Part shown: positions 1,038 through 18,216 of the stretch, piece after piece | Layout of the letters: every line of letters starts with the position of its first letter | Numbering within the stretch: the first letter of the stretch is position 1 | Assembly: GCA_019686135.1 (NCBI GenBank) | Contig: JADGHL010000033.1 | Location: 1 to 44,114, forward strand | Direction of reading: 5' to 3' | DNA: 44,114 bases | Origin: Myxococcaceae bacterium | GTDB lineage: Bacteria > Myxococcota > Myxococcia > Myxococcales > Myxococcaceae | Position numbers and translations under genes: made by a program | Notes under the pieces: generated by a model | Told to the model about the DNA's origin: nothing | Database searches by the model: none | Seen by the model: the letters and a program-made list of their open reading frames with translations, nothing else

Positions 1038-2714
1038 ATGAAGGTCGGCTCAGATTCCGCGGCGGTGACTCCGGCAGCAGCTTCCGTGACAGTCTCCAAC
1101 ACCGCGCTGGACCTGCTCACGGACTTCGTCCAGCAGACGCAGGCCGAGCTCGGGTTCGATCCGCTCGGCGGCCCGCAGCCCGAACAGATCCAGCAGCAGC
1201 AGGAGGTCCAAAAGCAGCAGCGCGAGGACGCTCAGGAACGGCAGGAGCAGGTCGCCCGCCAGCTGGATCAGGCCATCCGCGAGGCCGATCGCCGCGCGGA
1301 CCAGCCGCTCCGGAACCTCCTGACGAAGCTCAAGGAGGCGGTGTTGGCGGGGCCGCCCGAGACTCCGGGCGAGGAGAAGGCGCTCAAAGAGCTGCTCAAC
1401 CCGGGCATGCTCCTGCAGCAGCAGGACGGCTTCGGCGAACAGAAGGCGTCGCTCCCGCCCGCGGTGAAGCAGGCGGTGGAGTATTTGCGCTACGTCCTCG
1501 AGAACCCGATTCCGCCGCCCTCGTCGGACCTCGAGGTGCTCGACGAGCTCGCCGCGCAGAAGCTCGCCCAAGCCAACGAGGCCGGCGCGCCCGCCGAGGC
1601 CACACCCGAGCACGTCGATCCCCGCGATCAGAAGGTGCGGGAGTTCGTCGCCCGGTACTTTTCCGAGGCCTTCGAAGACGCACCCCGTCCGGCGCTGGAC
1701 AAGCCGCTGCCCCAGACGCCGCAGGAGAAGCTGGCCCAGCTGCCGAAGGACGCCCGCCCGGACACGCCGGCCTTCGCGCGGCTGACGCCGGAGGAGCAGA
1801 AGTTCGTCCTCACCGCCGACGCGCGGGAGATCGCCGCGTACAACCAGCTCCCGAAAGATCAGAAGTCCGTCTTCCGCGAGTTGAAGCCGCACGAGCGCCG
1901 CGAGTTCCTGAAGCTCAGCCCGGACGAGAAGCAGTTCGTGCAGCAGCTCGAGCCGGAGGCGCGCTCGCACTACCTCAACCTCCACCCCGACGGGCGCGCC
2001 GAGCTGCGCCAGAAGAGCCCGGAGCAGCGCGCGGCGATCTTCGCCGAGGTGAAGCAGCAGCAGGCGGAGGTGAAGAAGCAGCCGCCGGAGAAGGTGGCCC
2101 AGACGCTCGGCAAAGAGCTGCTGTCGCAGCTGGGCCTTCGGCCGGAGAAGAAGCCCCAGCTGCTCGAGAAGGCGCGGGCGCTCGCGTACAACTACCTCAC
2201 CGCCAGCGGGGGCGACCTCGCGCAGGCGCAGATGGGCACGCTCAAGGCGCTCATCCAGCAGCCGGAGGTCCAGCGCGCCCTGGAGAAGGACGTCGCCGCG
2301 GCGCTCAAGGCGGAGATGGCCCCGGCTGGATCGAACGAGACCCAAGAGGCCGCCGCTTCGAACGAGCCCGCCCGGCTCAAAGACGAGCTCCGGGTCGGCG
2401 ATCAGCGAGACGAGCAGCAGAGCGACCTGCAGCACGACCAGAAGCAGGAGCAGAAGGCCGAACAGCGCCCGTTCTTCCGCCTGCAGCAGGGCGTCAACTA
2501 CACGCAGCACTTCCAGAAGATCCGCCACGTGCTTCTGCCCGAGTTCGCGATGAAGCTGGTCCAGCCGGGCGTCACGCGCGACCAGATCGTGGAGGGGATG
2601 AAGAAGGCGGTGATCGTCAGCGCCGAATTCGCCCAGAGCCACCCGCCGCGCAGCGCGAGCGCCCGCTACCAGCAGATCCGCAGGGGCTTTGCCGCGCGTC
2701 AGCTGTTCGGCTGA
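1038..2714 (+). CDS. Large Gln/Glu-rich protein with tandem 11-residue repeats (paralogue of 14981-15799)
   Basis: I do not recognise a named family for this 558-residue protein. There is no signal peptide or membrane segment. Residues about 50-90 are Q/E/R-rich and probably coiled coil. Residues 249-336 are eight consecutive 11-residue units with consensus L-x-P-x-[ED]-[RQK]-x-x-[FY]-[LV]-x (for example LKPHERREFLK). A helical region follows, then a second Q/D/E-rich stretch (about 430-485). The C-terminal module, around residues 499-535, has an LLPEF start and QIV and VSA signatures. The minus-strand gene at 14981-15799 has the same repeat and the same C-terminal signature, so the two are paralogues. 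The ATG follows a good GGGGAGAGG ribosome site. By composition it is cytosolic or a non-Sec export substrate; the function is unknown. A needle-like small protein beside the paralogue hints at a type III-related context, which is inference. Confidence 0.85.
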   Translation: MKVGSDSAAVTPAAASVTVSNTALDLLTDFVQQTQAELGFDPLGGPQPEQIQQQQEVQKQQREDAQERQEQVARQLDQAIREADRRADQPLRNLLTKLKEAVLAGPPETPGEEKALKELLNPGMLLQQQDGFGEQKASLPPAVKQAVEYLRYVLENPIPPPSSDLEVLDELAAQKLAQANEAGAPAEATPEHVDPRDQKVREFVARYFSEAFEDAPRPALDKPLPQTPQEKLAQLPKDARPDTPAFARLTPEEQKFVLTADAREIAAYNQLPKDQKSVFRELKPHERREFLKLSPDEKQFVQQLEPEARSHYLNLHPDGRAELRQKSPEQRAAIFAEVKQQQAEVKKQPPEKVAQTLGKELLSQLGLRPEKKPQLLEKARALAYNYLTASGGDLAQAQMGTLKALIQQPEVQRALEKDVAAALKAEMAPAGSNETQEAAASNEPARLKDELRVGDQRDEQQSDLQHDQKQEQKAEQRPFFRLQQGVNYTQHFQKIRHVLLPEFAMKLVQPGVTRDQIVEGMKKAVIVSAEFAQSHPPRSASARYQQIRRGFAARQLFG

Positions 2715-13537: not shown

Positions 13538-14866
13538 CTAGCGCTCCGCGCGCGGAGGAGGCGGGCGCGGATCGTACCGGCCGGCGCCGGCCCTGGGCTC
13601 CACCCGCGTCGCACCCTGCGCAGGGAGGGGGAGGCGGACGCTGAAGCAGGCCCCCTCGCCCGGAGTGCTGTGGACGGTGATGGTCCCGCCCATCTGCTGG
13701 ATGAACTCGCGGGAGAGCGCGAGGCCGAGCCCGGTGCCCCGGCCCACCGGTTTGGTGGTGAAGAACGGTTCGAACAGGCGCGTCTGGACCTCGGGCGTGA
13801 TGCCGGGACCGTCGTCCTCCACGTCGATGTGCACGCCGTCTGCGTGTTCGCCCACGCGTACGCGGATCCGCCCGGGCCGATCCGTGCGGCTCTCCACCGC
13901 GTCGATGGCGTTGAGCAGGAGGTTGAGGATGACCTGCTCGAGCCGCTGCGGGTGGACGTGGGCCACCGGCGACCCCGAGGTGGCCACCTCGATGGTCACC
14001 CCCGTGGACCGCGACCGCACCGTGGCCAGCCGCACCGCGCTCGCCACCAGCGGTTCGATCTCGGCGTCGACCTGCACTTCCGAGCGGTCCCGCGCGAACG
14101 ATTTGAGGTCCTTCACGATCTGGGCGATCCGCTCCAGCCCCTCCGCCATCTCGTTGTGCAGATCCGCGCGCTCGGCCCCGCTCAGGCCGGCTTCGTCGTC
14201 GCGCAGGCAGGCCAGGTTCGCTTTCACGTAGGCGAGCGGGTTGTTGATCTCGTGCGCCACCCCGGCCGCGAGCTGGCCGATGAGGGCCAGCCGCTCCGCG
14301 CGTTCGCGCCGCCGTTCGGAGGCCTCCAGCCTGGCGCGGTCCTCGTACCGAGCCCGCTCCAGGGCGCGCTCCGTGTGGCGGAGCGCGCGGAACATCACCG
14401 CGGTGTACACCGCCAGGGCGCCGCACAACGTCAGGGAGAGTATGCTGCGGAACTGATCCGGATGGCCGTGGTCGATCCACAGTGCCCCGACGGTGATCAG
14501 CACGGCGGAGAGCGCGCTGGCGCGCCACGAGTACGGCGCGAGCGCGAAGGGAAACGCGGCCAGCCACACGGCATAGGGCCCGGGCAAACCGCCGGTGGCC
14601 GCGACGACGATCAGAAACGCGACGGTGGAGATGAACGCGGTGGCGATCACCGTGGCCGAGGCGGCGCGGCGCGATCCACGCAGGACCACCACTCCGGCGA
14701 TCGTCAGCAGGATGGCCCAGGCCACCCGCGTGGAGAGCGTGACGACGTCCCAGCCGACGATGAAGCCGTCGCACACCAGGAACACCGCCGCCAGCACCAC
14801 GCCCGCGAACATCCCTCCGGCCTGCTCCCGCCGGAGCACCTCCGCCTGGTCCTCGTCGTCGTCCAT
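13538..14866 (-). CDS. Membrane sensor histidine kinase (orphan)
   Basis: From the ATG at 14866 the protein has about 442 residues. Six hydrophobic segments occupy roughly residues 18-160, followed by a basic coiled-coil-like linker. The HisKA domain has the phosphoacceptor His205 in GVAHEINNPLAYV. The HATPase domain has an N box (NLLLNAIDAVE), the DDGPGI G1 box, LFEPFFTTK and GRGTGLGLALS. It should autophosphorylate and pass phosphate to a receiver. No response regulator is adjacent; the nearest is a single-domain regulator at 36466. The transmembrane input domain has no family I recognise. A GTG at 14908 could add 14 residues; neither start has a clear ribosome site. Confidence 0.92.
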   Translation of the reverse strand: MDDDEDQAEVLRREQAGGMFAGVVLAAVFLVCDGFIVGWDVVTLSTRVAWAILLTIAGVVVLRGSRRAASATVIATAFISTVAFLIVVAATGGLPGPYAVWLAAFPFALAPYSWRASALSAVLITVGALWIDHGHPDQFRSILSLTLCGALAVYTAVMFRALRHTERALERARYEDRARLEASERRRERAERLALIGQLAAGVAHEINNPLAYVKANLACLRDDEAGLSGAERADLHNEMAEGLERIAQIVKDLKSFARDRSEVQVDAEIEPLVASAVRLATVRSRSTGVTIEVATSGSPVAHVHPQRLEQVILNLLLNAIDAVESRTDRPGRIRVRVGEHADGVHIDVEDDGPGITPEVQTRLFEPFFTTKPVGRGTGLGLALSREFIQQMGGTITVHSTPGEGACFSVRLPLPAQGATRVEPRAGAGRYDPRPPPPRAER

Positions 14867-14980
14867 GCACGCGCGGGGCTGCAAGGCCCACGCCCGGCAC
14901 GGTGCCACTGTGTTCGCAGGGTTGGACGGCTGCCTTCGGGTCGACGCCGCCCAAAGGGGTGAAGCTGACCCGGGGCGCGC

Positions 14981-15799
14981 TCAGCCGCTGATGCCGCCGC
15001 GGAACTTCGACTTCAGCGACAGCCCGTCGTCCTCGTCGTCGTCATCGTCGGCGAGCTCGGCGAGCCGCTTCGCGGTGGCGGCGGACACCTCGGTGAGCTG
15101 GTCGATGACCTCGGGGACGATCTGTTCAAGCGACGAGTCCGGGCGGACCACCTGCTGGATCAACGACGGAAGGAACGGCTGGCCGCGCCGGAACACGTCC
15201 TCTTCCACGCGCTCGGCGATCTCCTTCGAGAGCGGGATCAGGATCTCCTTCGCGACCAGGAGGACTTTGAGGATCTCCGCGCGGGTCTGGCCCTCGTCCT
15301 TGCCGCTCCGCAGAAGGTTGTTGGCCATCCCGGTCGCGCGTTCGGCGATGTCGGGCATCGCGTCGCGGAAGGGGGAGAGCAGCAGCGCCACGTCCCTGCC
15401 GACGATCGCCGCGCGTGCGGCGATGTCCTGGGACTTCTGGCGCGCGGCCTGCGCGGCGGGTGTCTTCGAGAGGATCGCCTCGCGCTCCTGCGGGGACGCG
15501 GAGACGAAGGTCGAGAGCTCTTCGAACGAGAGCTCGCGCGAAAGGACCTTCAGGTGGGGCGGAAGCCGCAGGTACTCGCGCCGCTGCGCCGGGATGAGCT
15601 TCGCGTACCGGGTCTGTTCCGCCGGCGCCATCGCCGCGTAGACCGCGCGGTCGTACGGCGTGGACTCGATGAGGAAGCGCCGCTCGGCGGGATCGAGCTT
15701 GAGGAAGACCTCCCGATCGCCGGGAGGCAGCGCGTCCACGATCTCCTTCTCGGTGAAGCGGATCTGAGGCGTCGAATCCTGCGACGGAAGTGTGGACAA
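14981..15799 (-). CDS. 11-residue-repeat protein with acidic tail (paralogue of 1038-2714)
   Basis: This 272-residue protein has no named family I recognise. Residues 24-111 form eight consecutive 11-residue units (for example LDPAERRFLIE) with the same L-x-P-x-[ED]-R-x-x-[FY]-[LV]-x pattern as the 1038 gene product. A helical segment (about 125-205) follows. A C-terminal module starting FLPS (209-212), with QIV (226-228) and VSA, aligns with the end of the other protein. A run of Asp/Glu (251-258) precedes the tail. It starts with TTG at 15799 behind a GGGAG ribosome site. The needle-like gene lies 34 nt upstream on the same strand, so they are likely co-transcribed. The function is unknown; a chaperone-like or export-related role is only a guess. 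Confidence 0.85.
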   Translation of the reverse strand: MSTLPSQDSTPQIRFTEKEIVDALPPGDREVFLKLDPAERRFLIESTPYDRAVYAAMAPAEQTRYAKLIPAQRREYLRLPPHLKVLSRELSFEELSTFVSASPQEREAILSKTPAAQAARQKSQDIAARAAIVGRDVALLLSPFRDAMPDIAERATGMANNLLRSGKDEGQTRAEILKVLLVAKEILIPLSKEIAERVEEDVFRRGQPFLPSLIQQVVRPDSSLEQIVPEVIDQLTEVSAATAKRLAELADDDDDEDDGLSLKSKFRGGISG

Positions 15800-15833
15800 C
15801 GCGTGCTCCCGTGAAGTGTTTCCGCCGGCGGAA

Positions 15834-16058
15834 TCAGTGGATGTTGTTGATGATCGCCTTCGAGGTGTCGGCCTTGATCCGCATGATGTTGGAGATGAAG
15901 GTCACCAGCTCCTGCTGCTTCTGGAGCTTGAACTGGGCCTCCATCTGCGCCTTCTGCGCCGGGTCCTTCACCTTGGAGAGCAGGTTCTTCTCCTGGGCGG
16001 ACAGCGCGCTCGAGGTGGCCTTGCTCATCGTGCTCTTGCTGAGGCCCATCACGGACAT
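15834..16058 (-). CDS. Small helical protein resembling type III secretion needle subunits
   Basis: The 74-residue protein has a polar Ser/Lys-rich N terminus, then a helix-DP-helix arrangement and a C terminus ending AIINNIH. Needle subunits of the MxiH/PrgI group are of similar size (about 80 residues). They have an N/DP-type turn between two helices and end ...AAIIQNFR. The distance from the turn to the C terminus is nearly identical here (43 against 44 residues). Start: ATG with GGAG about 7 nt upstream. It precedes the repeat protein at 14981 by 34 nt. No type III apparatus gene is in the window. The resemblance is by eye and could be convergent for a small amphipathic helical protein. 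Confidence 0.4.
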   Translation of the reverse strand: MSVMGLSKSTMSKATSSALSAQEKNLLSKVKDPAQKAQMEAQFKLQKQQELVTFISNIMRIKADTSKAIINNIH

Positions 16059-16313
16059 AGTCAGACTCCGGTAGAGGGTGGTGGATGCCGACGCAGAACT
16101 TCATGCGGCGTGCCGAACGCAACTGCGCGGAAACTCTAGCGCAGGCGTGAGCACTGGAGCAGACACCGACCCCTCGAGAAGGCTGTGAGCGCGTGTGGGC
16201 GGCGGTGCGGTGTGCGGCGCGCGATGCAATCCGGCCGCTGGAACGGCGTGTGCTGTTCCAAAAGATCGTTCATCGCGGCCGTGCGTTCTTCGCCGCAGCG
16301 GAAAGGAGAGAGG

Positions 16314-17162
16314 GTGGCGCGCTCGATCGAGGAGATCCTGGAGCAGCTCCGCGCGAGGGTGCCGGGCCGCGTGCCTGGAGGGCCGCGCGGGCCGAGGCGC
16401 CCGAACCCGCTCAACCGCGCGTCCCGCTTCCTCGCGAAGTTCCGGTTCCTCTTCATGCCGGTGGGCCTGTTCGCGCTGATCGCCGTGGGCGTGCACGCCG
16501 CTGCCGACACGCTCGACGACCGGATCCTGTGGGTGGTGGACCACGTCGACGCCGCCTTCGACGCGCTGTTCGGGCGGTGGTCCGCGACAGAGTCGTGGGT
16601 CCACGCGATCGACCTCGAGGACCGCACGACGATCGCGCGGGCCTTCGCGCTCGTCTGGGAGCTGTTGGCCGACCTCGTGCTCGCGCTCCCGGCGTTCGGC
16701 TACCGCGAGGCAACGGACCGCCCGGTGCGGGGAATTTCCGCCGTGCTGGGCACCTCGCGCAGAAGGTGGCGCGACATCTTCCGCGACGTGGTCCGCCGCC
16801 CCACGGTGCTCCGGGTGACCCGGCCGCTCGCCACGGCGGCCGTGGTCATCGCCGGCGCGTGTGCGATCGGCCGGATGGTGCAGGGCGCCGTGTACCTCTC
16901 GCAGCGCGAGTGGCTGGGCGATGCGGCGTCGGGGCTGCTCGCGCGGCTGTTGGCGCTGGCGGCCCTTTGCGGGGTTCTGGCCGCGTTCGGCATGCGGGCG
17001 GTGCTGCGGAATCTCCAGCACGCGGACGAGGCGGCCACCGGAACACCGGGTCTCCGGTACGTGCAGATCGCAGCGAAGGGGATCCCCGGGTCCGCGGTCG
17101 TCATCCCACTGGCGATCGCGGCGCTCATCGACGCGTCGCCGATCTGGACCTTCTTCCGCTAG
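16314..17162 (+). CDS. Multi-pass membrane protein of unknown function
   Basis: I do not recognise the family. From the GTG at 16314, which follows AAGGAGAGAGG, the protein has 282 residues. The N terminus is basic and Pro/Arg-rich. It is followed by a hydrophobic segment (about 45-62) and further likely membrane spans near 115-135, 172-192, 205-225 and 255-275. The ATG of the M23 peptidase gene lies 13 nt after the stop, so the two are probably one transcript and this protein may act with the peptidase at the inner membrane. No catalytic motifs are visible. Confidence 0.8.
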   Translation: MARSIEEILEQLRARVPGRVPGGPRGPRRPNPLNRASRFLAKFRFLFMPVGLFALIAVGVHAAADTLDDRILWVVDHVDAAFDALFGRWSATESWVHAIDLEDRTTIARAFALVWELLADLVLALPAFGYREATDRPVRGISAVLGTSRRRWRDIFRDVVRRPTVLRVTRPLATAAVVIAGACAIGRMVQGAVYLSQREWLGDAASGLLARLLALAALCGVLAAFGMRAVLRNLQHADEAATGTPGLRYVQIAAKGIPGSAVVIPLAIAALIDASPIWTFFR

Positions 17163-17175
17163 CGGGGCCCGACGC

Positions 17176-18216
17176 ATGTTCGCGCGCCGCACCAGAGGGC
17201 TGTTCGAGTTCCTGATGACGCTCTTGTGCCTGTGGGCCGCCCTCTATCACACGCCGATGGGCGCCTTCGTCCGCCGCGGAATGGCGAAGGTGTTCGGCGT
17301 CCGCACCAGCGCGCGCCCGCTGCTCGCCTACTTCTCCGGCGGCGCCACGCCGCACCCGGGCGACCGCGTACTGGTCGTTCCCGAGCCGCCCGCGTTCGTC
17401 GGGCAGAGCGCGATCACCCCGGCGCTCGCGCTCGGGCTGGGACTCAAGGCCGCGCTGCATCAGCTCCCGGAGGATCGCCGCCGGCCTGTGCAGGATCTGG
17501 CGCGCCTGAGCGGACTCGATCCCGCGAAGCTGTGGGACGGGACCGAAGGCGCGGCGACCTCGGCGACGCTTCTGGCCCGGACAGCCGAGCGGCTCGGCAG
17601 CGAAGACGCCGCGGTGCTCGCCATCTTCGCGGGGCTCGAGCCTGCGCGCTACGCCGCGGACCGCTGTCGGGCGGAGGGGATGGACGCGCCGACTCTGGAG
17701 GCGCTCGCCCGCCACCTGCCGCCCGGCTTCGAGGACGCAGTGGGCGAGGCGTCCGACGCGCTCGCCTTCGGCACCGCGTACGGGCTCGCGTGGCCGGTGC
17801 CGGAGCGCACGCCGGTCACGTCCGGGTTCGGCGTCCGCATCCACCCGATCCTGGGGACGAAGCGGCTCCACACCGGCGTCGACCTCGGCATCCCGGCGGG
17901 GTCGGCGGTGCGGGTGACCGCGGACGGCGTGGTGCGGCGCGCGAGCGAGGACGGCGTCAACGGCCGCGTGCTCATCATCGACCACGGGCGCGGCGTCACC
18001 ACGGCCTACTGTCACAACAGCGTGCTGCTGGTGCAGGTGGGCGATGTGGTCCGGCGCGGTCAGGTGATCGCCCGCTCCGGCAACACCGGGCGCTCCACCG
18101 GTCCGCACCTGCACTATCAGCTCGAGCTCCACGACCAGCCGGTGGACCCGTTCGCCTTCCGGAGCCACCGCGCGTCCGGCACGCCCGGTGTCGTCTCCGT
18201 GCGGGGCAGCGACTGA
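17176..18216 (+). CDS. M23 family (LytM-type) metallopeptidase with N-terminal membrane anchor
   Basis: The 346-residue protein has a hydrophobic N-terminal segment (about 9-25, probably an anchor). A helical middle region of unknown family follows (about 75-200), then an M23 domain (about 205-325). The zinc and catalytic residues are present: His232 and Asp236 in HTGVD, His280, and the HLH pair His311/His313. The SGFGVRIHPI and SGNTGRSTGPHLHY motifs are typical. Active M23 enzymes cut peptidoglycan cross-bridges in the periplasm. With the zinc ligands intact it is predicted to be active, unlike degenerate EnvC/NlpD activators. It lies 13 nt after the membrane-protein gene and upstream of dut. 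Confidence 0.93.
   Translation: MFARRTRGLFEFLMTLLCLWAALYHTPMGAFVRRGMAKVFGVRTSARPLLAYFSGGATPHPGDRVLVVPEPPAFVGQSAITPALALGLGLKAALHQLPEDRRRPVQDLARLSGLDPAKLWDGTEGAATSATLLARTAERLGSEDAAVLAIFAGLEPARYAADRCRAEGMDAPTLEALARHLPPGFEDAVGEASDALAFGTAYGLAWPVPERTPVTSGFGVRIHPILGTKRLHTGVDLGIPAGSAVRVTADGVVRRASEDGVNGRVLIIDHGRGVTTAYCHNSVLLVQVGDVVRRGQVIARSGNTGRSTGPHLHYQLELHDQPVDPFAFRSHRASGTPGVVSVRGSD

What the first reader, a model, noticed from the sequence alone, without database searches (positions are those of the whole stretch)
1782..2045. Two paralogous proteins built on tandem 11-residue L-x-P-x-[ED]-R repeats
Residues 249-336 of the 1038 gene and residues 24-111 of the minus-strand gene at 14981-15799 (nucleotides 15467-15730) each hold eight gap-free 11-residue units with the same pattern L-x-P-x-[ED]-[RQK]-x-x-[FY]-[LV]-x. 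Exact 11-residue periodicity over 88 residues is striking and I know no named family for it. The two genes lie on opposite strands about 13 kb apart, flanking the translation operon.
Basis: seen in the sequence. Interest (0 to 1): 0.7.

Follow-up and report, generated by a model that had tools for sequence, protein, structure and literature searches.

The report
Eleven-residue helix repeats beside needle gene
Two rare related proteins in a myxobacterium carry a strict row of very short helices repeating every 11 residues, and one of them is encoded directly behind a gene for a type III secretion needle-like protein, which links the repeats to a secretion machine that the literature calls needleless.

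Summary
The repeats are real, at the stated coordinates, in phase in both proteins and far beyond chance. Proteins A (1038-2714 +) and B (14981-15799 -) are related beyond the repeat. AlphaFold predicts one 8-9-residue helix per 11 residues in both, without significant PDB match. 'No named family' needs correction: several weak, consistent signals place the repeat nearest the MgtE N-domain, whose units are 12 residues long; it stays below Pfam's cut-off. Two B-like genes in another Myxococcaceae MAG (SSF41) each lie 8 nt behind such a gene. No further B-like gene was found in 195 Myxococcota genomes or 84,980 species. A and the kinase-B-needle block are insertions into conserved synteny, so 'flanking the translation operon' is incidental. 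Best reading: B is a dedicated partner of the SctF-like protein and A its paralogue; escort versus secreted accessory stays open. A side result may matter more: clusters of the family's atypical T3SS encode SctF-like proteins, some in tandem, although the corresponding Myxococcus system is described as needleless.

The parts
1038..2714 (+). protein A, 558 aa, Gln-rich (12%), no transmembrane-like segment; N-terminal 226 residues acidic and without relatives found; repeat array; following region related to B
1782..2045 (+). eight 11-residue units of A (residues 249-336)
   Evidence: predicted as consecutive 8-9-residue helices
14981..15799 (-). protein B, 272 aa, TTG start with GGGAG 7 nt upstream; repeat array, then long helices, acidic stretch and the tail KSKFRGGISG
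15467..15730 (-). eight 11-residue units of B (residues 24-111)
   Evidence: predicted helices 17-23 to 103-110
14984..15025 (-). C-terminal tail of B (GLSLKSKFRGGISG); the two SSF41 relatives end M[AT]LLFRGGVLKG
   Evidence: alignment
15834..16058 (-). 74-aa SctF-like (type III needle) protein directly upstream of B, 34 nt gap
   Evidence: PF09392 over nearly its whole length at E 0.0018, TIGR02105 at E 0.03, both below cut-off; over-cut-off paralogues beside SctV on contig C133
13538..14908 (-). histidine kinase gene in the same inserted block, downstream of B; association with B not shown
   Evidence: Pfam HisKA and HATPase_c; absent after pnp in the three relatives with the conserved order

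Best explanation
A and B are lineage-specific accessory proteins of the Myxococcaceae type III secretion apparatus. Their shared module is a short-helix alpha-solenoid: one 8-9-residue helix per 11 residues, each opened by L-x-P-x-[ED]-[RKQ], of the MgtE N-domain type. Shown: the repeat, the A-B relationship, and the tight tandem of a needle-like (SctF-family) gene followed by the B-type gene in three of three B-type loci. Predicted: the fold. Inferred: B is made together with the needle-like protein and binds it through the helix array, most simply as an escort that keeps the needle-like subunit from polymerising before export; A is a paralogue that does the same for another needle-like copy encoded elsewhere in the genome.
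For: The SctF-like gene precedes the B-type gene in all three loci, with 34 nt between them in the window and 8 nt in both SSF41 loci. Solitary needle-like genes exist in other genomes without a B-type gene, so B-type genes, not needle-like genes in general, define the pairing. Needle identity: PF09392 E 0.0018 for the window copy; paralogues in G000 over the Pfam cut-off beside SctV; weak profile matches to PrgI and MxiH chains; 7 of 19 family members match PF09392, best 4.3e-8. B and A have no transmembrane-like segment (max 19-residue hydropathy 1.37 and 1.09). Both are predicted as regular helix arrays at pLDDT about 80-91. The two-unit repeat profile also fits the N-terminal half of several needle-like proteins in exact 11-residue register, including both SSF41 partners (p 0.004 and <0.001), which hints at a shared helical surface.
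Against: No interaction is shown. A has no needle-like gene beside it. The window's own needle-like protein fits the repeat register poorly (p 0.072, spacing 12), and profile-profile similarity of repeat and needle is weak (P 0.0019, probability 14%). Known needle chaperones (SctG, TPR-like) are not matched. The SSF41 B-type proteins have long Pro-rich linkers and a conserved C-terminal tail, unlike small chaperones, and are basic (pI 9.6, 10.4) like the needle-like protein, not acidic. Only two genomes carry B-type genes.
Confidence: 0.42

Rival explanations
1. B and A are themselves secreted accessory parts or effectors of the type III system (tip, cap, ruler-like tether, or prey-directed effector), co-exported with the needle-like protein.
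For: B-type proteins have conserved ends and a variable-length middle (137, 274, 272 aa), as tethers and rulers do. The 274-aa one carries three copies of a [KH]-[GA]-L-x-L-R-A-[LF] motif in its linker (read from the sequence). A begins with a Ser/Ala-rich stretch. Type III clusters of relatives carry a protein with DUF1521, a domain of secreted NopE-type proteins (PMC6506597), between their needle-like genes.
Against: No secretion evidence; no SctP, translocator or effector domain found in A or B; B-type genes are coupled to an orphan needle-like gene, not to the main cluster.
Confidence: 0.33
2. The 11-residue array is a diverged MgtE N-domain that has kept a soluble regulatory or scaffolding role with no functional link to type III secretion; the needle-like neighbour is coincidental.
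For: MgtE_N is the best Pfam match of A's isolated repeat (E 0.017); one of the weak repeat-profile hits in other genomes is an MgtE N-domain (E 0.0096); a unit profile fits MgtE repeats at period 12 (z 9.1); hhalign P 0.0002.
Against: Three of three B-type genes are directly behind a needle-like gene; no CBS or channel domain in A or B.
Confidence: 0.2
3. The repeat is a low-information helical filler (amphipathic, Pro-capped short helices) that arose independently in A and B and folds only weakly.
For: Only four sequences exist, so the models rest on little evolutionary information; no significant structural match in the PDB.
Against: A and B match outside the repeat; the register is exact in both; two predictions give the same array.
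Confidence: 0.05

Closest known systems
MgtE intracellular N domain (Pfam PF03448)
   Same: Tandem units L-x-P-x-[ED]-R-x-x-[hydrophobic]-[hydrophobic]; the nearest, though weak, hit by several routes. That it is a superhelix of short helices is from my own knowledge.
   Different: Unit is 11 residues here and 12 in MgtE (z 4.3 at lag 12, 0.6 at lag 11); score below Pfam's cut-off; no CBS domain or transmembrane channel; Foldseek did not list MgtE.
SctF / PF09392 / TIGR02105 needle subunits (for the neighbouring 74-aa protein)
   Same: Size, match over nearly the whole profile, C-terminal N-x-x-K-...-D-...-A-I-I-x-N-[hydrophobic]-[basic] pattern; paralogues sit in T3SS clusters beside SctV.
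   Different: The window copy is below the curated cut-offs and encoded away from the T3SS cluster; the main-cluster copies in G000 are 233-aa proteins with the needle domain at the C-terminus.
SctE-SctG needle chaperones (YscE-YscG, PscE-PscG)
   Same: Encoded next to the needle gene; soluble helical repeat protein (chaperone facts from own knowledge).
   Different: SctG is TPR-like with 34-residue units; no TPR match in A or B.
SctP/FliK-type rulers
   Same: Conserved ends with a length-variable middle among the B-type proteins.
   Different: No SctP or FliK C-terminal domain found in A or B.

Membership tests
MgtE_N (PF03448) | score above the curated cut-off | tested here: not met
   A's isolated repeat 16.0 bits against 25.9; B's isolated repeat no match
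MgtE_N (PF03448) | about 12-residue repeat unit | tested here: not met
   lag 11 in A and B; lag 12 in the MgtE of the same genome
MgtE_N (PF03448) | fusion to CBS and transmembrane channel domains | tested here: not met
   no such Pfam match; no transmembrane-like segment
MgtE_N (PF03448) | superhelix of short helices | tested here: inconclusive
   short-helix array predicted in both proteins; Foldseek listed no MgtE chain
SctF needle family (the 74-aa neighbour, not A or B) | match to PF09392 / TIGR02105 | tested here: inconclusive
   E 0.0018 and 0.03 over nearly the full length, below cut-offs; paralogues in the same genome over the PF09392 cut-off
SctF needle family (the 74-aa neighbour, not A or B) | relatives encoded inside a T3SS gene cluster | tested here: met
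   G000 C133 and clusters in G010, G013, G019, G103, G106, G146
SctF needle family (the 74-aa neighbour, not A or B) | polymerises into a needle exported by the T3SS | not testable with these tools
   needs biochemistry or cryo-EM
SctE-SctG type needle chaperone | gene adjacent to the needle gene | tested here: met
   B and both SSF41 relatives; not met for A
SctE-SctG type needle chaperone | TPR-like fold in SctG | tested here: not met
   no TPR match in A or B; the repeat unit is 11 residues
SctE-SctG type needle chaperone | binds monomeric needle protein | not testable with these tools
   needs co-expression and binding assays
SctP/FliK ruler | C-terminal substrate-switch domain | tested here: not met
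   no Pfam or NCBIfam match in A or B

The most novel reading that the evidence does not exclude
A previously undescribed class of type III needle partner: an 11-residue, one-helix-per-unit alpha-solenoid that binds a needle-like subunit, as part of a needle-like protein repertoire in the supposedly needleless system of predatory myxobacteria.
Probability: 0.3. Interest if true: 0.8.

Novelty: new variant of a known kind. Interest (0 to 1): 0.55.

Why it matters
If it folds as predicted, the repeat is an unusually compact single-helix repeat (11 residues). It is tied by gene order to an SctF-like protein. Reviews and recent work state that the myxobacterial T3SS* has no needle (PMC3459982, PMC10433427, PMC12075869), which leaves open how it moves proteins. 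SctF-like genes in and around these clusters, and a specific partner protein for some of them, make that question directly testable.

Tried and rejected
Third paralogue on contig C52 (E 0.16) and weak hits on C183 and C50: rejected; no repeat seen there. ORFs 15550-16122 and 16101-17192 on the minus strand: rejected as shadow frames. MctB (E 0.0023) and Importin_rep_4 (0.11): below cut-off and outside the repeat. Ubiquitin-binding motif UBM on the SSF41 proteins: 11-13 residues only, below cut-off. Foldseek PDB searches of B whole and of A's repeat alone: no match at E <= 0.001. VIA-align best Z 4.9 for B (its C-terminal helices) and 5.3 for A's repeat against a PABC/MLLE-type domain (53 residues, rmsd 2.3): both in the range the tool calls a common arrangement. 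BFVD: best E 0.6, a Klosneuvirus protein. PHROGs: nothing for A or B; phage and plasmid records: nothing for B. A further relative of A's N-terminal 226 residues: none in the loci read. The idea that A and B belong to the translation operon: rejected by synteny.

Full report
OBSERVATION. The window is contig C117 of a 5.5-Mb, 97% complete genome. Gene A (1038-2714 +, 558 aa) and gene B (14981-15799 -, 272 aa) hold the described 11-residue units exactly where stated. Autocorrelation stands out only at lags 11 and 22. Profiles made from one protein's units find the other's eight units at the exact positions, z 15.3 both ways and no shuffle in 1000 reaching them. A and B are homologous over about 185 residues, repeat plus following helical region. 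Several units are imperfect, so the consensus is a tendency and not a rule.

FOLD. AlphaFold2 on B with four sequences gives nine successive helices (17-23, 26-33, 37-45, 48-56, 59-67, 70-78, 81-89, 92-100, 103-110), pLDDT mostly about 79-87, then long helices and a disordered acidic stretch and tail. A's repeat alone, predicted separately, gives the same array (helices 24-32, 35-43, 46-54, 57-64, 68-75, 79-87, 90-98 and a longer last one), pLDDT about 80-91. Both runs rest on the same four relatives, so they are not fully independent. Foldseek finds no significant PDB match for either; the VIA second look gives only Z values in the common-arrangement range.

NEAREST FAMILY. Whole A and B match no curated family above cut-off. 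The isolated repeat of A has MgtE_N as its best Pfam match, E 0.017 and 16.0 bits against a cut-off of 25.9; B's has none. Consistent weak signals: MgtE appears in the PDB profile search (E 2.1); the MgtE_N model scanned over the whole genome puts A's repeat third (E 3.3); one of the weak hits of the repeat profile in 195 genomes is an MgtE N-domain (E 0.0096), while others are the starts of NRPS-like proteins or were not identified; hhalign P 0.0002 on two shallow alignments. The MgtE of this genome repeats at 12 residues, and the 11-mer profile from A and B fits its units at spacing 12 with z 9.1. I therefore call the repeat MgtE_N-like in kind but not a member.

DISTRIBUTION. B-type proteins were found only here and in G019 among 195 Myxococcota genomes. 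That scan uses short peptide patterns and can miss distant relatives. No match for B in phage or plasmid records.

CONTEXT OF B. Directly upstream of B, on the same strand, lies a 74-aa gene (15834-16058) whose best Pfam match is T3SS_needle_F over residues 10-73, E 0.0018, and whose NCBIfam match is the SctF model, E 0.03. Both are below cut-off. In SSF41 each of the two B-type genes follows a homologous 71-aa gene by 8 nt; in the window the gap is 34 nt. A profile of the three finds relatives in 159 of 195 genomes at E <= 0.01. In the window's genome two lie beside SctV on contig C133, as the C-terminal domain of two identical 233-residue proteins, and these pass the PF09392 cut-off. Of 19 aligned members, 7 match PF09392, best 4.3e-8, and a profile of them matches solved needle-related chains weakly (7y6c_F E 9e-5; PrgI and MxiH E 0.05-0.5). 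PF09392 itself reaches only 28 of 195 genomes at E <= 0.01 and passes its cut-off in 2, so most members are linked through the intermediate profile.

SYNTENY. In six relatives the nitrilase and rimP genes are adjacent and divergent with nothing between them; here A sits between. In three relatives (G008, G011, G014) pnp is followed directly by the gene homologous to window 16185-17162; here a block of histidine kinase, B and needle-like gene intervenes. In G007 that neighbourhood is inverted and in G010 it differs. So A and the B block look like lineage-specific insertions; loss in all relatives is less likely but not excluded.

MECHANISM. What is shown: the repeat, the A-B relationship, the tandem with a needle-like gene. 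What is predicted: the fold. What is inferred: binding and escort of the needle-like protein. The two-unit repeat profile also fits the N-terminal half of several needle-like proteins in register (p < 0.001 and 0.004 for the SSF41 partners, 0.072 for the window copy). Among called proteins of all fetched loci, one SSF41 needle-like protein ranks second after the windows of A and B. Profile-profile support is weak. I treat this as a hint only. A secreted-accessory role for B and A is almost as likely.

SIDE RESULT. Abby and Rocha state that Myxo systems lack SctF (PMC3459982); a 2023 review and a 2025 paper describe the M. xanthus T3SS* as needle-less (PMC10433427, PMC12075869). The clusters read here, in genomes of the same family, carry SctF-like genes next to SctV, several of them as tandem near-identical copies (for example seven in G103). 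I found no paper in the held library that reports these genes as needle homologues, but the library is not complete.

Noticed in passing
L072 14293-15102 and 15201-15902; L074, L084, L085, L088, L089: Type III clusters in Myxococcaceae encode SctF-like (PF09392-related) proteins, some in tandem near-identical copies, although the Myxococcus T3SS* is described as needleless.
   Followed up: partly
L074 12791-13843: A DUF1521 (NopE-type autocleavage domain) protein is encoded between needle-like genes in a T3SS cluster; proteins of similar size stand in the same place in other clusters.
   Followed up: partly
L099 1520-3339 (G019 C361) and L073 (G000 C226): A second type III system: in SSF41 it has a needle/HrpA-like gene followed by SctI-like and SctJ genes; G000 has a fragment of a second system on a 6.2-kb contig.
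   Followed up: partly
window 13538-14908 (-): Membrane histidine kinase inserted together with B and the needle-like gene after pnp; no response regulator looked for.
   Followed up: no
L080 8852-9673: The 274-aa B-type protein of SSF41 has three copies of a [KH]-[GA]-L-x-L-R-A-[LF] motif in its Pro/Ala-rich linker.
   Followed up: no
L075, L086, L087, L090, L091: Solitary needle-like genes outside any visible T3SS cluster, without a B-type neighbour.
   Followed up: partly
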